Source: Hippopus hippopus (lineage: Eukaryota > Mollusca > Bivalvia > Cardiida > Cardiidae). Taken from it: a DNA stretch of 64,000 bases. The stretch covers positions 13,543,565 to 13,607,564 of the forward strand of contig OX328107.1 of the NCBI GenBank assembly GCA_946811185.2, given 5' to 3'. The position numbers and the translations under genes were made by a program. Under the pieces are notes generated by a model, which searched no databases, had not been told where the DNA came from, and saw only the letters and a program-made list of their open reading frames with translations. Of the stretch, positions 9,251 through 59,877 are shown piece by piece (positions within the stretch are counted from its first letter, which is position 1; every line of letters starts with the position of its first letter).

Positions 9251-9494
9251 CGCTGCGTAGCCTAATGGTTAAAATAACACTAGTATTTATTGAAAGCAGC
9301 CCTCGTTAATTTCCGCGTTTGATGATGTACTTCATATACGTCAAAGTAGCCCCATTCTCTGTGTGTGTTTTTTTTTTAATGAAAGCTCAAACCATTTATG
9401 CCACATGCAATTAATATTCTTATTATTAAATCAAAATACGTATAATATTTTTGTTCACACATTAATCTTTCCATGTACATGTACATTAATTACA

Positions 9495-9561
9495 GACCCA
9501 CTAGCGGCCAAAAGAAAACAGTTCGGGAGTCAAAATGCAGACAAATTTAATGCATTTAAAA
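9495..9561 (+). CDS. Candidate exon 2 of the small secreted protein
   Basis: A pyrimidine-poor but usable acceptor (TTAATTACAG, ending 9494) precedes a segment reading DPLAAKRKQFGSQNADKFNA when joined in phase 1 to the candidate exon at 8536-8737. A donor-like GTATTA follows at about 9562; without splicing, the frame runs straight into the 39-bp minisatellite. KRK would be a prohormone-type cleavage site. Caution: a diverged inverted copy of this same segment lies at about 11085-11150, so it may be part of a repeat rather than an exon. Confidence 0.3.
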
Positions 9562-9578
9562 GTATTAATACTATAATG

Positions 9579-10752
9579 AGTCTAACAATGTGTTATAGTA
9601 CGGTCCGTCAAAGTTCTATTCTAACAATGTGTTATAGTACGGTCCGTCAAAGTTCTAGTCTAACAATGTGTTATAGTACGGTCCGTCAAAGTTCTAGTCT
9701 AACAATGTGTTATAGTACGGTCCGTCAAAGTTCTAGTCTAACAATGTGTTACAGTACGGTCCGTCAAAGTTCTAGTCTAACAATGTGTTACAGTACGGTC
9801 CGTCAATGTTCTAGTCTAACAATGTGTTACAGTACGGTCCGTCAAAGTTCTAGTCTAACAATGTGTTACAGTACGGTCCGTCAAAGTTCTAGTCTAACAA
9901 TATGTTACAGTACGGTCCGTCAAAGTTCTAGTCTAACAATATGTTACAGTATGGTCCGTCAAAGTTCTAGTCTAACAATGTGTTATAGAACGGTCCGTCA
10001 AAGTTCTAGTCTAACAATGTGTTACAGTACGGTCCGTCAAAGTTCTAGTCTAACAATATGTTACAGTACGGTCCGTCAAAGTTCTAGTCTAACAATGTGT
10101 TATAGAACGGTCCGTCAAAGTTCTAGTCTAACAATGTGTTACAGTACGGTCCGTCAAAGTTCTAGGCTAACAATGTGTTACAGTACGGTCCGTCAAAGTT
10201 CTAGTCTAACAATGTGTTACAGTACGGTCCGTCAAAGTTCTAGTCTAACAATGTGTTACAGTACGGTCCGTCAAAGTTCTAGGCTAACAATGTGTTACAG
10301 TACGGTCCGTCAAAGTTCTAGTCTAACAATGTGTTACAGTACGGTCCGTCAAAGTTCTAGTCTAACAATGTGTTATAGAACGGTCCGTCAAAGTTCTAGT
10401 CTAACAATGTGTTACAGTACGGTCCGTCAAAGTTCTAGTCTAACAATGTGTTACAGTACGGTCCGTCAAAGTTCTAGTCTAACAATGTGTTACAGTACGG
10501 TCCGTCAAAGTTCTAGGCTAAAAATGTGTTACAGTACGGTCCGTCAAAGTTCTAGTCTAACAATGTGTTACAGTACGGTCCGTCAAAGTTCTAGTCTAAC
10601 AATGTGTTACAGTACGGTCCGTCAAAGTTCTAGTCTAACAATGTGTTATAGAACGGTCCGTCAAAGTTCTAGTCTAACAATGTGTTACAGTACGGTCCGT
10701 CAAAGTTCTAGTCTAACAATGTGTTACAGTACGGTCCGTCAAAGTTCTAGTC
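9579..10752. repeat. 39-bp minisatellite, about 30 copies
   Basis: Unit core ACAATGTGTTACAGTACGG followed by TCCGTCAAAGTTCTAGTCTA. 1174 bp divided by 39 gives 30.1 copies, with few substitutions (TAT/TAC, ATG/ATA, AGT/AGA, AGT/AGG). Each unit contains ACGGTCCGT, a near-palindrome. Because 39 is divisible by three and the unit lacks stops in one frame, the array is wholly open and gives a spurious 472-codon ORF (9363-10781) with a 13-residue repeat. Most unit variants change the amino acid, so there is no sign of coding selection. Confidence 0.95.
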
Positions 10753-10772
10753 GCTCGCAGGAACCTTATTTT

Positions 10773-10955
10773 AACCCTTAGGCTGCTAAGCGAGACTCAC
10801 TGACCTTTTCCGGACAGCGTAGATCAAGATCAGACAGCACAGAACGTCCGATAAGGAGATATCGTAGCTCCAAAAATACCTTTGAAACAGGAAAATTTGG
10901 GGTTTTACTATCGGCTTGAAAGATTTATTTCTTTTAATTTAGCAGGGTAAGAATT
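10773..10955 (+). repeat. MITE family C copy
   Basis: It starts TTAACCCTTAGGCTGCTAAG, carries AGATCAAGATCAGACAGCAC and TCCGATAAGGAGATATCG, and ends TTTAGCAGGGTAAGAATTAA. The second hairpin arm is partly deleted. Confidence 0.75.
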
Positions 10956-21046: not shown

Positions 21047-21051
21047 TAGAG

Positions 21052-23184
21052 TGTCAGAAATAATCTGTAAGGTACAGGCAGTACCACATGTTGTATATAG
21101 TTTAATGACTATCATTGTGAGTACCGGGAGTACTTTGATCGTTTGATGCTTTAGTACTGTTTTTGGAATACATTGTTTCTTTTGAATAAATCAGTGTTTA
21201 TGTTGTGTTAAATAATATGCATTTTTGTTTTGTTATATTCTGCAATAGATACATTGTAATTTCACGTTTTAAGTCTCGGTAGATTATCAGGTCAAGAAAT
21301 CATAACGCTTTTAGAAACATAAAATTCTGACCCTGTTTAGTCGACTTATAATTGGTGAATATTAATAGTGCCAAACTTCTCATCGTTCCACGTTGTTGCA
21401 ACATTACACTGCGACAGCAATTTCTCTCCGTAACCCATTTCAGAGAAATCACTCTTTTCACGCTGTGGATATAGGCATAGGGGTACGTAGTTTGACTCCT
21501 GTCACCCATAGACTAAAACAAGGGATTTAACTGTATGCAGCCCGTTACTCGCCCCCGGTTACAAAAAACAACGTATCTTTTCTACCCCATCAGTTATTCT
21601 CCTAATTTTTTCTACAGCTGAGAGCTAAAACATTTTTCTACCAGAAAAACACAACTGTTTGTCAGTGGCTAATGCAGTCTGGCTGATACATTAGCTCGAA
21701 CTTGTAAACTCGCTCAAAAATCTTCGCCATTAACACGGGTTCGTACATTCAATACTGACGTTCGCGCATATAAACCAATGAATTTCTCGTTCCAAACAGT
21801 GTCACCGTACTGTCACGTGACAAAAAGGTGTGAGCAGTTGTACGAAATTTCATTGGTTGAATTCACGACTGTTAGTACATATCAACCGATGAAATTTCTC
21901 GTTGCAAACAATGTCACATGACAGAAGATGGCTGCAGCTGTTCGAAATAAGAACGTGGATCACAAATTCAACGAATTCTGAGGCGTTTCGTCGTTATTGA
22001 AGATAAAGACTATAGGTCAGTAGTATTTTTAAACATGTTTAAAGGGTGGGTGCCGCTAATGCTGCGTTTCATTGGATCTAAAGTGCATTTTATATCTTGA
22101 AAACGGATGTACGAACCCGAGTCAATGGCGAAGATTTTTGAGCGAGTTTACAAGTTCGAGCGAATGTATCAGCCAGACTGCATTAGCCACTGACAAACAG
22201 TTGTGTTTTTCTAGTAGAAAAATGTTTTAGCTCTCAACTGTAGAAAAAAATAGGAGAATAACTGATGGGGTAGAAAAGATACGTTGTTTTTTGTAACCGG
22301 GGGCGAGTAACGGACTGCATACAGTTAAATCCCTTGTTTATAATATATAGTCTATGGATGCCAGGAATCAAACTACGGACCGCTATGGATATAGGCGACA
22401 CAAAGTTGAGCAGATCGACTAGCACAGAGCAAGATCGACAGAGGCTCAGCATTCGTCTTCCCATCTACAACGCTGAGGAGTAAACGACGCTCGTCTACGC
22501 TTCAAACAGCCCAGCTTCAGAGAGGTCCATCCTCACTCCAAAAAACGTTGGATTGATTCGGGAGCTATTCGAACGAACCAGCCTCAAACAGCCCAGCTTC
22601 AGAGAGGCTCAGACTCATTCCAAGCACGATAGACTGACTCGGGATGTTGCTTCAACACGTCCCATACAGACCCAGCCTCAAACAAGCCCGTTCCAAGCAC
22701 TTTGAAGCTGAGACGTCTTGTCTTACAGTTCTGGCCTAGGCAGTGAGGGTTGAACAGATCGGTCTGAAACACAGACCGACAGCGGTTCAGCACAACACCG
22801 TTCCTGGCCAGCTTCAGACAGACTTGGAAGTGTTTCACAGGAACTTGTTTGAAGACGTTTGAAGCCAAATAAGACTGACAGGGTGTTTGAAGCCAAGACA
22901 CGAACGACAGTCTGAAGCAACGTTCATACTCCGTCCGTGTTAAACCAAAGACAGAAGTTTGAGCTTGGCACTTTGTCTCTATAGACTGTATAAGACAGTC
23001 GTTTGGCGTCCAACGGATAATCTACCAAGACAGTAGTTTGATGCTTTTGTGTTTTTAGTTTCAAATCAATTGAGGCCAGATAGCCTGAGGAAAATTCTAT
23101 ATATCACCCAAACTGTACATATTCCCTGGTAAGACATTGTCACCTGAGAGACAAACCCACTCTTCGTCATCATATCTGTTGACA
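21052..23184 (+). repeat. 5' LTR, split by a nested element
   Basis: It spans TGTCAGAAAT to CTGTTGACA. Excluding the nested 908-bp insertion and its duplication it is about 1.21 kb, equal to the 3' LTR. An AATAAA signal at about 21185 is shared with the 3' LTR. Small ORFs on its minus strand have no meaning. Confidence 0.9.
21478..22385. mobile_element. Non-autonomous long-TIR element nested in the 5' LTR
   Basis: Both ends read inward as TAG(G/C)GGT(A/C)CGTAGTTTGA and the match continues for about 250 bp, including ACTCGCCCCCGGTTAC and TGTCAGTGGCTAATGCAG. The interior of about 400 bp has no ORF. TGGATATAGGC is duplicated at 21466-21476 and 22386-22396, an 11-bp direct repeat, present once in the 3' LTR as TGGATATAAGC. 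Long inverted ends with a 9-11 bp duplication are typical of Mutator-like elements, but no transposase is present to confirm. Confidence 0.8.
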
Positions 23185-23187
23185 ACT

Positions 23188-23205
23188 TGGAAGCTCGTCC
23201 GGGAT
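23188..23205 (+). other. Primer-binding site, tRNA-Pro-like
   Basis: TGGAAGCTCGTCCGGGAT starts 4 bp after the LTR end. It differs at two positions from the proline-tRNA primer site known in gammaretroviruses, so tRNA-Pro is the likely primer; exact matching to the host tRNA was not possible. Confidence 0.7.
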
Positions 23206-23263
23206 AGTTTTGAGCGGGTATTTTAGACTTGGGTTTATTGTACTGAAACACTGATATATAGAA

Positions 23264-24571
23264 ATGGACTTCAGCAAGTGGATAGAGGCCGGAGAACGTT
23301 TAGGTTTAGAAGGGTCTGAGCTGAGGCAGTATGTAGAGAAAAAAGAGACCGAGTACTTAGAAAGAGAAGAGAGGGCCAGGGAACGCGAGGAAAGACAGGC
23401 AGAGATGCAGCGCGAAGAAGAAAGCAAACGTCGGTCGTATGAGATGGAACTACGATCTCGAGAACTAGAAATTCTCAGACTTAGGTCCGAAATGAAGTCT
23501 AGAGCAGAGGGTTCAACGTCGCTGTTTGAAACCAACAACAAATCCCCCAGACCGAAACTTCCGAAGTTTGAGGAAGGAAAGGACGACATGGACGCTTATA
23601 TCGAGCGTTTTGAGCATTTCGCTACTAGCCAGGGCTGGCCACATGAAACTTGGGCCATCAGTTTGAGTTCACTTTTGAGCGGTAAAGGTCTTGAAGTGTA
23701 CACCAGCATGCCTCCGGAGTCGGCGAATGACTACAAAACTTTGAAGAAAGCTGTACTGAGGCGGTATCAACTGACTGAAGACGGTTTCAGACAAAAGTTT
23801 CGAGATAGCAAGCCCGAGCAGGGAGAAACGGTTTTTCAGTTTATAGCTAGACTGTCACGATACTTTGAGCGATGGGTTGATATGGCGGAGGTAGAAAAGT
23901 CATTTGAGGGTTTGACAGACTTGCTCGTTCGAGAACAGTTCACCAGGACTTGTTCCCCCGAACTTGCACTGTTTTTGAAGGAAAGAATGCCAAGATCCTT
24001 GCAAGAGTTCACAACTTTAGCTGAGCAGTACGTCGAGGCACATGGAAGTATGGTATCTTCAAAAGGTTCTAAACCAAAACAAAACCAGTCTTCAACGAAG
24101 CAAAAATTGAAGTGTTTCGTGTGTGACAAAGAAGGGCATATTGCGAAGGATTGTAGATCTGGGAAGTCAAAACAGGACTCCAAACAGAAAGTGTCGGTTT
24201 TGTGCACTATCGAAAATATGGAGGGTGAGAGAAACATGAAGTTGGAGCAAGGCTATGTAGGTTCCAACAGAGTCAAGGTTTTGAGGGATACAGGCTGCGA
24301 ACTAGCTGCCGTGAGGCGACATTTGGTTGGAGACGACCAAATCTTAGACAAAAGGTATCTGATGATTACCATAGACGGCGAAGCAAAGATAGTTCCAGCT
24401 GCCCGAATCCATGTAGATACTCCATATCGAGGGGAGCTTGAAGTCATGGTACCGAAGTCATTGATTTGTGACTTGGTGATCGGAAACACCCAGGGGTCTC
24501 AGACATTCCGGTCCCAAGCAACCGTGAAGATTCCCAGTCAAACACAGAAACTTTGGCTGGGGCAGTTTTGA
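23264..24571 (+). CDS. gag-pro: Gag with SCAN-like capsid, CCHC knuckle and aspartic protease
   Basis: This intact 435-codon ORF encodes the structural polyprotein of the particle plus protease. Residues about 25-85 are a charged coiled coil (EREERAREREERQ). Residues about 105-260 are the capsid. Its second half, from about 175 (FRQKFRDSKPEQGETVFQF through LVREQFTRTCSPELALFL to AEQYVEA), has the layout of the vertebrate SCAN domain. A CX2CX4HX4C nucleic-acid knuckle (CFVCDKEGHIAKDC) is at 284-297. The protease has its catalytic DTG at 342-344 (followed by C where A is usual) and DLVIGN near 401-406. The first ATG after the 5' untranslated leader is used. The stop lies inside the start of the pol frame, so pol is in the -1 frame. 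Confidence 0.9.
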   Translation: MDFSKWIEAGERLGLEGSELRQYVEKKETEYLEREERAREREERQAEMQREEESKRRSYEMELRSRELEILRLRSEMKSRAEGSTSLFETNNKSPRPKLPKFEEGKDDMDAYIERFEHFATSQGWPHETWAISLSSLLSGKGLEVYTSMPPESANDYKTLKKAVLRRYQLTEDGFRQKFRDSKPEQGETVFQFIARLSRYFERWVDMAEVEKSFEGLTDLLVREQFTRTCSPELALFLKERMPRSLQEFTTLAEQYVEAHGSMVSSKGSKPKQNQSSTKQKLKCFVCDKEGHIAKDCRSGKSKQDSKQKVSVLCTIENMEGERNMKLEQGYVGSNRVKVLRDTGCELAAVRRHLVGDDQILDKRYLMITIDGEAKIVPAARIHVDTPYRGELEVMVPKSLICDLVIGNTQGSQTFRSQATVKIPSQTQKLWLGQF

Positions 24572-27391
24572 CCAGGGCTCAGGTTAAGAAGAAAGAAAAA
24601 TCGTTGAGCCCATTGAAGGTTTCAAAAACTCAACAAAGTCAGGAAATCAACACCGATGAGCTGAGGTCGGCTCAGACGGAAGACAAGTCGTTGGAACGAC
24701 TGTGGAAACACGCCGACAGCAAAACAGTATTCAAAACCAGGGGTGGAAATACGTTTTCATACATGGTTCGAAAAGACATACTGTACAGAGTGTTTCAGGA
24801 GAAACGAGGCTCATCGACGTTTGAAGTCAGACAAATTGTGGTTTCAAAACTACAGAGACATAGAGTCATGGAACTCGCTCATGAGTCCATAGTAGATGGA
24901 CATTTATCTTCAAAAAAGACAGAAGATAGGATTTCAAGCAGTTTTCACTGGCCTGGCATCTCGAGCGATGTAACAAGGTTTTGTCGTTCGTGTGATATTT
25001 GTCAGAAAACTATACCTAGGGGCAGGGTTACAAAAGTTCCGCTGGGACAGATGCCTATTATAGAAATCCCGTTTCACCGTGTAGCTGTTGATCTCATCGG
25101 CCCGATAACTCCAGTTTCGGACAGAGGCAACAGATACATTCTCACAGTTGTAGACTACGCTACAAGGTACCCTGAGGCTATAGCATTGCCAAAAATTGAG
25201 GCCGAGCGAGTGGCCGAAGCACTGTTTGAAATATTTTCGAGGGTAGGGTTTCCTTCTGAAATACTGAGTGACAGAGGAACACAGTTTACCTCAGAGTTGA
25301 TGCAGGAAGTTTCTAGACTGGTTTCAGTGAAACAGCTTTTCACAACCCCATACAACCCGAAATGCAATGGTTTGTGTGAGCGCATGAACGGAGTTTTGAA
25401 GAGCATGCTTAAAAAGATGTGTCAAGAAAAACCCCAAGACTGGGACAGATACCTTCCAGCAGTTTTGTTTGCATACAGAGAAGTCCCGCAGGCAAGCACT
25501 GGGTTTTCACCGTTCGAGCTTCTCTACGGTCGCACAGTGCGTGGACCGATGCAAGCTTTGAAAGAGCTATGGACGGAACAAGAAACGCCCGAAACCAGAA
25601 GCACGTATGAGTATGTGCTTGACTTGAGGCAGAGACTTGAAGAAACATGCAGAATTGCTTGGGAGAGTTTGAGCGAAGCCCAGAGCACGTTCAAGCACCA
25701 CTATGACAAGAAAGCACGAAAGCGAAATTTGCGGGTTGGAGACAAAGTTTTGGTTTTGCTGCCTACAAACCATAACAAAATGCTATTACATTGGAAAGGA
25801 CCGTTTGAAGTGGTCGAAATAGTGAACAAGATGGACTACAGATTTCGGGTAGGAGACAAAATTAACACCTATCATATTAATTTGTTGAAGAAGTATGAAG
25901 ACCGAAGTCAAGTAGTTTCAGCCACAGCAGCGGTTATTGAGGCCGAGCACCATTCCGACGTCGGAGCTGTAGACGACGAAAATTTGCTCGAATTAACCAA
26001 CTTGAAGGGTGCTGAAACTTGGCGTGATGTTCAGATCAGCGATCAATTGTCTCCATGCCAACAGAACGAAGTTACAGAGTTGTTACAAGAGTACAGCTCT
26101 ATATTCACAGACAGACCGGGCACAACGATGTTGACCCAACACAAAGTAGAACTGACTAGTTCAAACCCGATTCGTGTGAGACAGTATCCAATACCTTATG
26201 CAAAGAGGGAGGAGATTGACTCTGAAGTCGAGACAATGTTGGAGGCTGGAGTCATATAGCCTGCCAGCTCAGAGTACAATTGGCCCATTGTTATGGTGAA
26301 AAAGCGCGATGGTACCAGCCGGTTTTGCATAGACTTCAGAAAGATCAACGCCGTGACAAAGTTTGACACCGAACCCATTGGTTGTGTCGACGACATTTTG
26401 GCCAAGTTGAAAGTCGATAAGTTTTTCACAAAAATTGACCTTGCGAAGGGGTATTGGCAGATTCCTGTACAAGAAAGTTCGAGACCTGTGACTGCTTTTT
26501 CAACTGCAAAAGGTAGTTACCAATTTAGAAAAATGCCTTTTGGGATGGTAAATTCTGGGGCGACATTCAATCGTATGATGCGAAAACTATTGAAGGGTTG
26601 TTCGCAGGCAGACAACTACGTTGATGACATTTTGGGTCATACCCAGTCATGGAAGCAGCACATGGCTATGCTCAGAGACTTGTTTGAGCGAATCAAAAAT
26701 GTAGGTTTGACTGTCAGGCCGTCAAAATGTTTGATAGGTTTCACGGGACACATTGTCGGTAATGTCATTGTTCAAATGGAGGACAAGCTTATGAAAATCA
26801 GAGATGCTGAGCAACCCGTGACGAAAAAGCAAGTACAGGCATTTTTGGGCTTAGCTGGATACTACTGTTGGTTCATACCGTCCTTCGCTGAAATAGCGGC
26901 ACCACTGACAGACTTAACCAAGAAAGGTTTGACTAATAAGTTTGTTTGGTGTCCAGAGCACGAACATTCGTTTCAAACATTGAAATCACAACTTACCCAG
27001 AGGCCCATTACCAGACTTCAAAAAGACGTTTGTCCTACAAACAGATGCATCGGATAATGGGATAGGAGCAGCACTGCTGCAACAATTCGAGGATGGTATT
27101 TTTCCGATAGCATATGCAAGCAAAAAGTTGCTTCAAAGAGAAAAGAATTATTCCGTCACAGAACGGGAATGTTTGAGTATAGTGTTTGGAATCAAGAAAT
27201 TCCAAAAGTATCTGTACGGCAGAGAGTTTGTGTTGCATACAGATCATGCTCCTTTGTCTTACATTCAAAAGAGCAAACCTGAGAGTGCTAGGATCATGCG
27301 TTGGGCTCTGTTCCTACAAAATTATAGTTTCAGAGTCGAATCAATCAAAGGTTCAGAAAACGTTTGTGCCGACTATTTGAGTCGACAGTAG
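24472..27391 (+). pseudogene. pol: Pol: integrase, reverse transcriptase, RNase H (one stop, one frameshift)
   Basis: The frame is open from 24472, overlapping gag by 100 bp in the -1 frame; no ATG lies in the overlap, so frameshifting is the likely expression route. Counting from 24553: integrase HHCC zinc site at H110, H117, C147 and C150; catalytic D180, D240 and E276 with 35 residues between the last two (DD35E); GPF module at 416-418; then a linker and the RT N-terminus from about 525. An in-frame TAG at 26257-26259 interrupts RT. The same frame resumes with FTKIDLAKGYWQIP and the catalytic YVDD (about 26617-26628). Near 27020-27035, by an A-run, a one-base shift moves RNase H (TDASDNGIGAA to LSRQ) into another frame, ending at 27391. 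Both breaks would abolish full-length pol. Confidence 0.9.
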
Positions 27392-27433
27392 TTACAGATT
27401 ATTTTTCAATGTAAATATAGGATATATTTTCTT

Positions 27434-27446
27434 GAGAAGGGGGCAG
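27434..27446 (+). other. Polypurine tract
   Basis: GAGAAGGGGGCAG ends 2 bp before the 3' LTR. It is the expected plus-strand priming site. Confidence 0.8.
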
Positions 27447-27448
27447 TT

Positions 27449-28660
27449 TGTCAGAAATAATCTGTAAGGTACAGGCAGTACCACATGTTGTATATAGTTT
27501 AATGACTATCATTGTGAGTACCGGGAGTACTTTGATCATTTGATGCTTTAGTACTATTTTTGGAATACATTGTTTCTTTTGAATAAATCATAGATTTTAA
27601 TTTCAATTAGTGTTTATGTTGTGTTAAATAATATGCATTTTTGTTTTGTTATATTCTGCAATAGATACATTGTAATTTCACGTTTTAAGTCTTGGTAGAA
27701 TATCAGGTCAAGAAATCATAACGCTTTTAGAAACACAAAATTCTGACCCTGTTTAGTCGACTTATAATTGGTGAATATTAATAGTGCCAAATTTGTCATC
27801 GTTCCACGTTGTTGCAACATTACCCTGTGACAACAATTTCTCTCTGTAACCCATTTCAGAGAAATCGCTCTTTTCACGCTGTGGATATAAGCGACACAAA
27901 GCTGAGCAGATCGACAGAGGCTCAGCATTCGTCTTCCATCTACAACGCTGAGGAGTAAATGACGCTCGCCTACGCCTCAAACAGCCCAACTTCAGAGAGG
28001 TCCATCCTCACTCCAAAAAACGTTGGATTGACTCGGGAGTTATTCGAACGAACCAGCCTCAAACAGCCCAGCTTCAGAGAGACTCAGACTCATTCCAAGC
28101 ACGATAGACTGACTCGGGAAGTTGCTTCAACACGTCCCATACAGACCCAGCCTCAAACGGACCCGTTCCAAGCACTTTGAAGCTGAGACGTCTTGTCTCA
28201 CAGTTCTGGCCTAGGCAGTGAGGGTTGAACAGATCGGTCTGAAACACAGACCGACAGCGGTTCAGCACAACACCGTTCCTGGCCAGCTTCAGACAGACTT
28301 GGAAGTGTTTCACAGGAACTTGTTTGAAGACGTTTGAAGCCGAATAAGACTGACAGGGGTGTTTGAAGCCAAGACACGAACGACAGTCTGAAGCAACGTT
28401 CATACTCTGTCCGTGTTAAACCAAAGACAGAAGTTTGAGCTTGGCACTTTGTCTCCATAGACTGTATAAGACAGTCGTTTGGCGTCCGACGGATAATCTA
28501 CCAAGACAGTAGTTTGATGCTTTTGTGTTTTTAGTTTCAAATCAATTGAGGCCAGATAGCCTGAGGAAAATTCTATATATCACCCAAACTATACATATTC
28601 CCTGGTAAGACATTGTCACCTGAGAAACAAACCCACTCTTCATCATCATATCTCTTGACA
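27449..28660 (+). repeat. 3' LTR
   Basis: 1212 bp from TGTCAGAAATAATC to TCTTGACA. Compared with the 5' LTR it has a short extra segment (CATAGATTTTAATTTCAATT region) after AATAAA, a few substitutions, and lacks the nested element. The solo LTR at 40313-41535 also has the extra segment, so the 5' LTR probably carries the deletion. Confidence 0.9.
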
Positions 28661-28710
28661 TAGACCAATTCCGGATCTGCCTAGGTCAGATTGGAACCCC
28701 TATATAACGG
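28661..28710. repeat. Palindromic short-repeat array, right part
   Basis: TAGACCAATTCCGGATCTGCCTAGG and the following CAGATTGGAA resume the array seen at 20865-21046, showing that the retrotransposon inserted into it. Confidence 0.6.
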
Positions 28711-40312: not shown

Positions 40313-41535
40313 TGTCAAGAGATATGATGACGAAGAGTGGGTTTGTTTCTCAGGTGACAATGTCTTACCAGGATATATGTACAGTTCTGGTGATATATAG
40401 AATTTTCCTCAGGCTATCTGGCCTCAATTGATTTGAAACTAAAAACACAAAAGCATCAAACTACTGTCTTGGTAGATTATCTGTCGGACACTAGACGACT
40501 GTCTTATACAGTCTATAGAGACAAAGTGCCAAGCTCAAACTTCTGTCTTTGGTTTAACACGGACGGAGTATGAATGTTGCTTCAGACTGTCGTTCGTGTC
40601 TTGGCTTCAAACACCCTGTCAGTCTTATTCGGCTTCAAACGTCTTCAAACAAGTCCCTGTGAAACACTTCCAAGTCTGTCTGAAGCTGGCCAGGAACGGT
40701 GTTGTGCTGAACCGCTGTCGGTTTGTGTTTCAGACCGATCTGTTCAACCCTCACTGCCTAGGCTGGAACTGTGAGACAAGACTTCTCAGCTTCAAACTGC
40801 TTGGAACGGGTCCGTTTGAGGCTGGGTCTGTATGGGACGTGTTGAAGCAACTCCCCGAGTCAGTCTAGCGTGTTTGGAGTAAGTCGGGACCTCTCTGAAG
40901 CTGGGCTGTTTGAAGCTGATCCTTTCGGAACAGCTCCCAGAGTCAGTCTAGCGTGTTTGGAGCGAGTCTGGATGTATCTGAAGCTTGGCTGTATGAGACT
41001 GGTACGTTTGAAGCGTGGACGAGCGTCGCTTGCTCCTCAGCGTTGTAGATGGGAGGAAGTATGCTGAGCTTCTGTCGATTTGCCCTGCGTCGCCTATATC
41101 CACAGCGCGAAAAAGTGTGATTTCTCTGAAATGGGTTACGGAGAGAAATTGTTGTCGCAGTGAATTGTTGCATCAGCGTAGAATGACAATGATTTTGGCA
41201 CTATTTATATTCACCAATTATAAGTCAACTAAACAGGGTCCGAATTTTGTGTTTCTAAAAGTGTCATGATTTCTTGACCTGATAATCTACCAAGACTTTA
41301 AATGTGAAATTACAATGTACCTATTGCAGAATATAACAAAACAAAATGCATATTATTCAACACAACATTAACACTGACTGAAATTAAAATCTATGATTTA
41401 TTCAAAAGAAACAATGTATTCCAAAAATAGTACTAAAGCATCAAATGATCAAAGTACTCCCGGTACTCACAATGATAGTCATTAAACTATATACAACATG
41501 TGGCACTGCCTGTACCTTACAGATTATTTCTGACA
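40313..41535 (-). repeat. Solo LTR of the Gmr1-like element, with 5-bp target duplication
   Basis: This is the inverted complement of the LTRs at 21052 and 27449, from TGTCAAGAGATATG to TTTCTGACA (1223 bp), with no internal retrotransposon sequence. AACAG stands directly on both sides (40308-40312, 41536-41540), a perfect 5-bp target duplication. It is more diverged than the two LTRs of the full copy. It arose by recombination between the LTRs of an inserted element inside the mariner relic. Confidence 0.92.
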
Positions 41536-44530: not shown

Positions 44531-45450
44531 ATCTATAATGTCCTTGCAAAGATATCGCAATCTTTGATGTCCTTGCGATGATATCGCGATCTCTGTTGTC
44601 CTTTCAATGATGTCGCAATTTCTCATGTCCTTGCGATGATATCGCAATCTCTAATGACCTTGCGATGATTTCGCTGCCTCTGATTTCCTTGCGTTGATAT
44701 TGCGATCTCTGATATTCTTGCTTTGATGTTGAGACCTCTGATGTCCTTGAGATGATGTCGCGATCTCTGATGTCCTTGCGATGATGTCGCGATTTCCAAT
44801 GTCTTTGCGAAGATGTCGCGATCTCTGATGTCCTTGCAAAGATGTTGCAATCTCTGATGTCCTTGCGATGATGTCGCGATCTCTGATGTCCTTGTGAAGA
44901 TGTGGCATCTCTGATGTCCTTGCGATGATGTTGTGATCGCTGATGTTCTTGCAATGATTTTGCAATCTCCGATGTCATTGCAATGATGTCGCGGTCTCTG
45001 ATGTCCTTGCAATGATGTTGCAATCTCTGATGTCCTTGCGATGATTTTGAGATCTCTGATGTCCTTGAGTTGATTTTGAGATCTCTGATGTCCTTGCGAC
45101 GATTTTGAGATCTCTGATGTCCTTGCGATGATTTTGAGGTCTCTGATGTCCTTGCGATTATTTTGAAATCTCTGATTTCCTTGCGATGATGTCGTGATCG
45201 CTGATGTTCTTGCAATGATTTTGCAATCTCCGATGTCATTGCAATGATGTCGCGGTCTCTGATGTCCTTGCAATGATGTTGCAATCTCTGATTGTCCTTG
45301 CGATGATTTTGAGATCTCTGATGTCCTTGCGATGATTTTGAGGTCTCTGATGTCCTTGCGATGATTTTGAGATCTCTGATGTCCTTGCGATGATTTTGAG
45401 GTCTCTGATGTCCTTGCGATTATTTTGAAATCTCTGATTTCCTTGCGATA
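44531..45450. repeat. 29-bp minisatellite with 261-bp higher-order period
   Basis: The unit core is CTGATGTCCTTGCGATGAT; about 31 copies. Because 29 is not divisible by three, and the unit lacks stops on the minus strand in every frame, three overlapping minus-strand ORFs (226, 291 and 104 codons) are open. Each shows a 29-residue repeat made of three successive units. A block of nine variant units (starting GATCGCTGATGTTCTTGC at 44935) recurs 261 bp later at 45196. It is flanked immediately by a family A MITE. Confidence 0.95.
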
Positions 45451-45457
45451 GCGCTGA

Positions 45458-45670
45458 AACTCTTTATCACACGACAATACTTTTGTATTGTTGTCCAAAT
45501 ATATATTCCAAGTAGCTTCAATTATGGAATTTGTCTTGAAAAGGTAGAAAACATTGTGGGAAATAAGAAAATGCTAATTACCAACATTTCTTTCCTTTTT
45601 CCTGCAATGTTTTCAAAGCTTATTTCTTCAGGGTAGTTAAAACTCGGGATTGTTTGGTAAATATTTAAAA
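45458..45670 (+). repeat. MITE family A copy
   Basis: AACTCTTTATCACACGACAA, AGAAAACATTGTGGGAAATA, TTCCTTTTTCCTGCAATG and GGGATTGTTTGGTAAATATTTAA. Confidence 0.7.
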
Positions 45671-58380: not shown

Positions 58381-59877
58381 TACTGACGTCCATAAGAAAC
58401 GCCGCATCTCCCTCTGTAGCGTCATATTTCATGAATTAAATATCGAATGCATGATTTTGTAATTTAAAAATGGACTTTGTCAATATTTCTACACACATCA
58501 CATGACACAAGCGTTTAGCTAAATATTACACAAATTTAACAGCCATTTCAACAAACTCACCCCCTTAAATTCATCAATACCGTGTATGGCCTCCTTGACT
58601 TGCTATCAGTGCCTGCAGTCGCCGTCCCATGGACCCACACAGATTACCCAGGAAGCAGCGTGGAATGCGAGTCCACTCTTCACGAAGAGCCTTTATCAAT
58701 TCTTGGACGTTTTGTGGCTGTGGGTTACGTCGACGTAAACGACGTCCAAGGATGTCCCACATGTGTTCGATTGGGTTACAGTCAGGAGAGTAAGCAGGCC
58801 ACGAAAGCACGGCAATATTATTGGCCATGAGAAAGTTTCTGGTAAATCTGGCCGTGTGGGGGTGCGCATTGTCATGTTGAAATGTAAGGCTACGGCGTTG
58901 CTGAAACATGGGAACGACCACAGGGCGAAGAACTTGGTTTACATACCGTCTGCCATTTAAATTACCATTAATAACCACTAGGTCAGTTCTAAATGTGTGT
59001 TTTATTGCTGCCCAAACCATTATACCACCACCACCAAAACGGTTGTGCTCCAGAACACAACTTTGGGTGTACCGTTCATTACGTCGACGGCAAACGCGGA
59101 CTCATCCGTCGGCACAGGAGAGGTTAAAACGGGATTCTTCACTGAAGACCACATCACGTCAACTTCTTCCAATGTTGTTTTGAGCCCACTGCCGACGTTC
59201 CCGACGGTGGCGGTTAGTTAGCACAAAACCACGGTACGGCCGCCTGCACAATATTCCACTATCCCGAAGACGTCGCCTTACTGTATTTCGATTTACATGT
59301 CTTCCACGATTCCCTATAACCATCGACGTTGTGGATTGCGCTGTGACAAAACAGTTTCGCAAGTGACGTTGACGGATGAAATTGTCTTGTCGAACAGACG
59401 TCACACGCGGAGCACCAGGTCGGAGTCTATCAGACAAGCTCCTTGTTTCGTTTACCCGTCGAACAAGACGCACTATTGTTGATCTTGCAACGTTAAAGCG
59501 TCTTGCAACGTGACTTTGGGAAAGACCGCTTTCAAGCATGCCCAAAATGCGTGCTCTTTCTTCATTATTTTGTCTTGGCATTTTCGAAATTGATGTTTTC
59601 AAAATATTGCTCGGAGTACTTAATTGTAAATCAATTACTGTATACACATGCGTAATTTTGACAGACAACACTACGTGGGGAAAATGCATGGGACGCCTGG
59701 GCAAAACGGTGCCATGAGCCATGTTTGAAGAAAACATAATAGACTGGCACGAAATTTCATACTTCAGTAGATTAGAGAAGTGAAAATTCAATGGTAGGCA
59801 AAAAGTGACATATATATTCTAGGTATGTACAAAGCTATCGCACTTTTGCGATGAGGCGTTTTTTATGGACGTCAGTA
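58381..59877 (-). mobile_element. Tc1-like DNA transposon, almost full length
   Basis: 28-bp inverted ends, TACTGACGTCCATAAGAAAC at the left and its near-complement at 59850-59877, differ at only two or three positions and sit in TATATA, consistent with a TA target. The interior carries a minus-strand transposase. Length about 1.5 kb is normal for the family. Confidence 0.85.
58574..59581 (-). pseudogene. Tc1-family transposase with two in-frame TGA stops
   Basis: Read from ATG 59581 the single frame runs 335 codons to a stop at 58574. The N-terminus has two helix-turn-helix units (GLSQSHVARRFNVARSTI and RNTVRRRLRDSG). TGA codons at 59159-59161 and 59102-59104 break it; both are one change from ordinary codons. 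The first catalytic site reads FSEES where FSDES is usual, so the first acidic residue is E, not D. The second D lies in QHDNAHPH and the E in CNPIEHMWD with 34 residues between (DD34E spacing). The C-terminus GGHTRY is intact. ATG 59581 is chosen over 59791 because the family begins near MPRQNNEER. Confidence 0.85.

What the first reader, a model, noticed from the sequence alone, without database searches (positions are those of the whole stretch)
23264..27391. Ty3/gypsy-type retrotransposon with integrase upstream of reverse transcriptase
Seen: protease DTG, then an integrase (HHCC, D180/D240/E276, GPF module), then RT (YVDD) and RNase H in one plus-strand series. Known: Ty3/gypsy elements normally end with integrase; the Gmr1 group, first described from fish and other deuterostomes, has this Ty1/copia-like order. 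Inferred: a Gmr1-like lineage in what appears to be a mollusc, with LTRs, a tRNA-Pro-like primer site and a solo relative in the same window, so the family has been active here.
Basis: partly seen in the sequence, partly recalled or inferred. Interest (0 to 1): 0.8.

Follow-up and report, generated by a model that had tools for sequence, protein, structure and literature searches.

The report
Gmr1-like retrotransposon in a bivalve-like genome
This is a worn-out copy of a jumping element of the Ty3/gypsy type whose integrase gene sits before the reverse transcriptase instead of after it; related copies in the same genome keep the same order and look recently active, so it is a real lineage of a known, uncommon kind and not a local rearrangement.

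Summary
Window 21052-28660 (+) is an LTR retrotransposon: gag with SCAN-like capsid, protease, integrase, RT, RNase H, between 1.21-kb LTRs (the left split by a 909-bp insert), with a 5-bp target duplication (4 of 5 matching) and a tRNA-Pro-like primer site. This copy is dead: two frame breaks, one in-frame stop, LTR divergence 0.040. In its genome 69 of 78 listed integrase matches are at 80% identity or more; 27 of these have open frames of 1434-1459 codons without stops; five dated copies have LTR divergence 0-0.008. Of 20 regions read, 18 show integrase before RT, 2 show no integrase by the same search; four other gypsy loci have the usual order. RT and integrase match Ty3 best among solved structures. 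Of 210 related proteins with both domains, 202 are integrase-first, in molluscs, a brachiopod, a crustacean, echinoderms, a hemichordate and a sea squirt. The gag profile's best solved match is a human SCAN domain. So it is Gmr1-like: a new member of a known kind. Cod Gmr1 was unavailable, and a mollusc survey's Cigr-1 clade may overlap.

The parts
21047..21051 (.). 5' target-site duplicate TAGAG (3' partner TAGAC, 4 of 5 identical)
21052..23184 (+). left LTR (TGTCA...TGACA), interrupted by an insert
21477..22385 (.). 909-bp insert inside the left LTR, with inverted-repeat arms (21516-21748 / 22107-22339, 97% complementary) and direct repeats TGGATATAGGC on both sides (21466-21476, 22386-22396); looks like a MULE-type or foldback DNA element
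   Evidence: the class is inference
23188..23205 (+). primer-binding site, tRNA-Pro-like; two differences from the site in long-frame copies
   Evidence: tRNA identity recalled
23264..24232 (+). gag: long helix, two-lobed capsid (SCAN-like second lobe, 23783-24046), CCHC knuckle 24113-24154; end approximate
24233..24505 (+). protease with DTG (24287-24295)
   Evidence: profile match to residues 327-417 of the frame
24472..26259 (+). integrase frame: HHCC, DD35E, GPF module, then the linker to RT; ends in TAG 26257-26259
26260..27057 (+). reverse transcriptase (YVDD 26617-26628), frame broken near its end
26984..27391 (+). RNase H, in another frame than RT
27434..27448 (+). polypurine tract GAGAAGGGGGCAGTT
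   Evidence: same tract before the 3' LTR of copies
27449..28660 (+). right LTR, 1212 bp
28661..28665 (.). 3' target-site duplicate TAGAC
40313..41535 (-). solo LTR of the same family, flanked by CTGTT on both sides

Best explanation
A degraded copy of a Ty3/gypsy LTR retrotransposon of the Gmr1-like, integrase-first group. Shown from sequence: LTRs, target duplication, primer site, polypurine tract, and gag-PR-INT-RT-RH in that order; related copies in the same genome carry the whole series in one frame. Inferred from LTR-element biology: a single Gag-Pol polyprotein is made; its capsid, whose second lobe is SCAN-like, builds particles; a tRNA-Pro primes reverse transcription; the protease cuts integrase out ahead of RT-RNase H; the DD35E integrase inserts the cDNA with a 5-bp target duplication. 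This copy can no longer code for that. The family was active recently elsewhere in the genome.
For: Domains and order. RT best solved match Ty3 4ol8 at 1.4e-44, next group 2e-26; integrase best match Ty3 7q5b at 3.2e-30, next 1.9e-21. 18 of 20 fetched regions have INT before RT. Own-genome search: 69 of 78 listed matches at 80% identity or more (74 of 3162 candidates scored); most run through integrase to the end of the query just before RT. Five dated copies: LTR K2P 0.0009, 0.008, 0.0018, 0.0041, 0, with perfect 5-bp duplications; window copy 0.040. RT tree (54 rows): the 10 RT-first rows are one side of a branch, the 41 integrase-first and 3 unscored rows the other, 80/86; the window row sits in a 16-row set at 98/83 that holds the Ciona protein. 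SCAN: Pfam 4.8e-11; a profile of seven gags finds ZNF24 SCAN at 5.6e-6 and PEG3 SCAN at 2.6e-5; capsid fold.
Against: The branch parting the two orders is not strongly supported (RT 80/86; INT 74/88; 89/92 without the lizard). In the INT tree the lizard protein, which has SCAN gag and integrase before RNase H, falls with RT-first rows at 96/93, on a long branch. Three genomic loci have SCAN gag and RT without a full integrase: L004 and L027 with none found by tblastn, L019 with pieces found only by profile, before RT; one Haliotis gene model (P0337) reads SCAN gag-PR-RT-RH with no integrase. The window gag alone finds no SCAN chain in the PDB at 0.01. Cod Gmr1 was not in the trees.
Confidence: 0.92

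Rival explanations
1. It is a separate integrase-first lineage that reached the copia-like order on its own and is not one clade with Gmr1.
For: The branch that holds the integrase-first rows is below the starred level in both trees; the lizard integrase falls outside in the INT tree; cod Gmr1 was not tested.
Against: In the RT tree the window family nests inside sets at 98/83 (with Ciona) and 95/96 (with echinoderm and hemichordate elements). SCAN-type capsids are shared.
Confidence: 0.07
2. The order is a local rearrangement of an ordinary RT-INT element, or a chimera made by nested insertion.
For: This copy is broken and its left LTR holds an insert.
Against: The same order in 18 of 20 other regions and in 202 of 210 related proteins with both domains; open frames of 1434-1459 codons in 27 of 69 family matches.
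Confidence: 0.01
3. A Ty1/copia or BEL/Pao element misread as gypsy.
For: The domain order is that of copia.
Against: RT is Pfam RVT_1 and no copia- or BEL-specific family is in the table; the integrase carries a GPF module; best solved relatives of both enzymes are Ty3.
Confidence: 0.01

Closest known systems
Gmr1 clade of Ty3/gypsy (Goodwin and Poulter 2002, not held; described in passages of PMC6238403, PMC8220671, PMC3587641)
   Same: Ty3-type RT with integrase upstream of RT; SCAN found in over half of the Gmr elements of a frog (PMC4131045), and the SCAN domain is held to come from a Gmr1-like capsid (PMC4592553).
   Different: Host is a bivalve-like genome; direct clustering with cod Gmr1 not tested.
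Mercenaria mercenaria proteins P0001 and P0002 (gene models without a functional name)
   Same: Integrase-first; 68% and 65% identity over 96% of the integrase frame; nearest named rows in the RT tree.
   Different: Another species; not annotated as Gmr1.
Ciona intestinalis protein P0293 and the Cigr-1 clade of molluscs (PMC6238403)
   Same: P0293 is SCAN-type gag-PR-INT-RT-RH and lies in the same 98/83 RT set. PMC8220671 cites the Ciona transposon paper when it lists Gmr1-clade hosts.
   Different: Whether P0293 is Cigr-1, and whether mollusc Cigr-1 elements are integrase-first, was not tested.
Ty3 (yeast)
   Same: Nearest solved RT and integrase.
   Different: In 7q5b the RT match lies at 627-878 and the integrase match at 1087-1449: the opposite order.

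Membership tests
Ty3/gypsy LTR retrotransposons | RT of Ty3 type | tested here: met
   RVT_1 4.9e-28; Ty3 4ol8 1.4e-44
Ty3/gypsy LTR retrotransposons | integrase with HHCC, DD35E and GPF module, nearest to Ty3 | tested here: met
Ty3/gypsy LTR retrotransposons | LTRs, primer site, polypurine tract, short target duplication | tested here: met
Gmr1 clade | integrase upstream of RT | tested here: met
   window and 18 of 20 other genomic regions
Gmr1 clade | groups with other integrase-first elements of deuterostomes | tested here: met
   RT tree: in a 16-row set with Ciona at 98/83 and a 34-row set with echinoderms and a hemichordate at 95/96; the whole integrase-first side only 80/86
Gmr1 clade | groups with cod Gmr1 itself | not testable with these tools
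   no row named as cod or Gmr1 in the protein tables; most rows are unnamed
Gmr1 clade | SCAN-type capsid (over half of Gmr elements in a frog, PMC4131045) | tested here: met
   PF02023 above cut-off; profile to ZNF24 SCAN 5.6e-6; single-sequence search found no SCAN chain at 0.01
Ty1/copia | copia-type RT | tested here: not met
   RVT_1 is the only Pfam family for the RT frame at 0.01; no Ty1 RT among the best 60 of 199 solved matches
BEL/Pao | integrase after RNase H | tested here: not met
Cigr-1 clade of molluscs | groups with the Ciona element Cigr-1 | tested here: inconclusive
   groups with a Ciona protein whose identity with Cigr-1 is unknown

The most novel reading that the evidence does not exclude
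The integrase-first order arose once within Ty3/gypsy, together with the SCAN-type capsid, before cnidarians and bilaterians split, and has since been kept across animals, with this bivalve-like genome holding several families at once. The vertebrate SCAN domain would then be a late borrowing from a capsid lineage far older than vertebrates.
Probability: 0.5. Interest if true: 0.55.

Novelty: new member of a known kind. Interest (0 to 1): 0.42.

Why it matters
The order of pol domains is used to tell gypsy from copia. A recently active, multi-family, integrase-first gypsy group in a bivalve-like genome, with kin in several animal phyla, suggests that the exception is widespread and that pipelines which classify by domain order, or by an RT tree alone, may misfile it. 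It also gives natural copies with long open frames in which to ask why this order is stable, and it ties the SCAN domain of vertebrate zinc-finger proteins to capsids found in molluscs and a sea anemone.

Full report
What is there. The element spans 21052-28660 on the + strand. The right LTR is 27449-28660 (1212 bp). The left LTR, 21052-23184, is the same sequence interrupted by a 909-bp insert. Both LTRs begin TGTCA and end TGACA; the flanking five bases are TAGAG and TAGAC. The primer site starts three bases after the left LTR and the polypurine tract ends at the right LTR.

Coding parts. Stop-to-stop frames are 23255-24571 (gag and protease), 24472-26259 (integrase), 26260-27057 (RT) and 26984-27391 (RNase H). 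Pfam names them SCAN 4.8e-11 and zf-CCHC; Integrase_H2C2 3.9e-17 and rve 6e-13; RVT_1 4.9e-28; RT_RNaseH 7.7e-40. The catalytic motifs are in place, with 35 residues between the second D and the E of the integrase. The copy is broken: the frame changes between protease and integrase and between RT and RNase H, a TAG stands at 26257-26259, and the stretch between knuckle and protease is about 140 bp shorter than in a long-frame copy.

Type. Among solved structures the RT is nearest to Ty3 (4ol8, 1.4e-44), ahead of the next group at 2e-26. The integrase is nearest to Ty3 (7q5b, 3.2e-30), then a foamy-virus integrase at 1.9e-21. In 7q5b the RT match lies at 627-878 and the integrase match at 1087-1449, so the order here is the reverse of Ty3.

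Same genome. G000 has 1.07 Gb in 34 contigs. A SCAN search scored 150 of 411 candidates, and the 150 listed are above Pfam's cut-off. Twenty regions chosen from these fall into at least three families by protein identity to the window, piece by piece: about 91-98% (L011-L017, L025, window family, broken-frame pieces apart), 34-53% (L018, L029) and 25-48% (L019-L024, L026-L028, L030). In 18 of 20 integrase precedes RT; in L019 and L027 tblastn finds no integrase, and in L019 the profile finds integrase pieces before RT. In the arrays L014 and L025 the tail of one unit precedes the head of the next. Of the ten 3.27-kb loci, seven show integrase after gag, two show neither integrase nor RT, and one, L004, shows RT soon after gag with no integrase. 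The integrase search scored 74 of 3162 candidates and listed 78 matches: 69 at 80% identity or more, the window's own included, and 9 at 46-56% from one or more other families, whose relation to L018 I did not check. By my count from that table, 27 of the 69 have an open frame of 1434-1459 codons with no stop in the match; these are lower bounds. As a control, L031, L033 and L034 from the same genome read RT, RNase H, integrase, and L032 likewise by profile; L031 and L032 have identical RTs, so these are fewer than four families.

Age. The window copy's LTRs differ by K2P 0.040 (37 transitions, 9 transversions in 1195 sites). Five other copies give 0.0009, 0.008, 0.0018, 0.0041 and 0, each with a perfect 5-bp duplication. 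With the rate used in PMC8220671 (1.3e-8 per site per year; not calibrated for this host) that is about 1.5 million years for the window copy and at most about 0.3 million for the others. An LTR search scored 40 of 271 candidates; by my count 13 pairs at 5.6-5.7 kb spacing look like whole elements, and several singles may be solo LTRs.

Relatives. Three protein searches listed 120 of 2422, 120 of 2032, and 119 of 119 proteins, 355 in all without repeats. With profiles built from these sets, 210 have both domains: 202 integrase first, 8 RT first; 145 lack one of them. The 8 are five plant proteins, a mite and two unnamed. The sets were found with integrase-first queries, so the ratio says that close relatives keep the order, not that the order is common. 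Named hosts with integrase and RT both seen in that order include Mercenaria, Mizuhopecten, Pinctada, Argopecten, Pecten, Ylistrum, Littorina, Lingula, Macrobrachium, Amphiura, Diadema, Holothuria, Glandiceps and Ciona. For three more the order is seen only in part: the sea anemone Actinostola protein has SCAN gag, protease and integrase and then ends; the tick Ixodes proteins have integrase after protease and no RT found; the lizard Zootoca protein has SCAN gag, integrase and RNase H, with RT not found. One Haliotis protein has SCAN gag, protease, RT and RNase H and no integrase.

Trees. RT, 54 rows: the 10 RT-first rows are one side of a branch at 80/86. The window row is with its own family at 100/99, with Mercenaria at 98/92, and in a 16-row set with Ciona and Littorina at 98/83. 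INT, 62 rows: the 37 integrase-first rows are on one side at 74/88, but the lizard row, whose order could not be scored against RT, falls on the other side, at 96/93 with four RT-first rows, on a long branch; without it the branch is 89/92. So one origin fits the data but is not proven. In the INT tree the window family lies with Lingula and Actinostola (100/99), and Ciona stands further off.

Literature (passages only, found by word search). PMC6238403, a survey of LTR elements in 56 mollusc species, names Gmr1 once, in its background, as the exception with integrase upstream, lists 21 gypsy clades in molluscs without Gmr1, and lists a Cigr-1 clade (12 families, 1476 copies in genomes, 3 in databases). 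PMC3587641 reports the first Gmr1-like elements of protostomes in crustaceans. PMC8220671 reports a Gmr1 family in an annelid. PMC8556966 says that Gmr1 is present in several phyla. PMC4131045 finds SCAN in over half of the Gmr elements of a frog. PMC4592553 gives the link between SCAN and the Gmr1-like capsid. PMC2774666 notes the copia-like integrase order of Gmr1. PMC7998251, an ostracod survey, does not name Gmr1. I found no paper that describes an integrase-first gypsy element in a mollusc, by the search listings, in an open-access library, having opened only the eight papers named here.

Verdict. The most useful new points are the order across several families of one genome, the recent activity, and the SCAN-type capsid outside vertebrates.

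Noticed in passing
G000 C11 about 33.816-33.857 Mb (L014), C7 about 13.893-13.912 Mb (L025): Head-to-tail arrays of the window's family: eight integrase matches at about 5555-bp spacing on C11 and four at 5573 bp on C7, one LTR between units; neighbouring units 99.98% alike over 4442 bp in L014. Unequal recombination between LTRs, concatemer insertion, or an assembly error.
   Followed up: partly
window 21477-22385: 909-bp insert with long inverted repeats and an 11-bp direct repeat on each side, inside the left LTR; looks like a MULE-type or foldback DNA element.
   Followed up: partly
window 58574-59818 (-): Two frames that read like a Tc1/mariner transposase, broken (family recalled by eye, not searched).
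   Followed up: no
window 9294-10781 and 44604-45573: Long open frames made of short peptide repeats (minisatellite-like DNA), unlikely to be genes.
   Followed up: no
P0337 (Haliotis rubra gene model), P0324 (unnamed), L004, L027: SCAN gag and RT with no integrase found (P0337; L004 and L027) or with none listed in the Pfam column but an SH3 piece (P0324): deleted or spliced-over integrase, or non-autonomous relatives.
   Followed up: partly
L031, L032, L033, L034: Ordinary-order gypsy elements with a further open frame of 241-361 aa downstream of pol, cut by the end of the fetched stretch, perhaps env-like.
   Followed up: no
P0218: A protein filed under Campylobacter is 69% identical to the integrase piece of L021: probably animal DNA in a bacterial assembly.
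   Followed up: no
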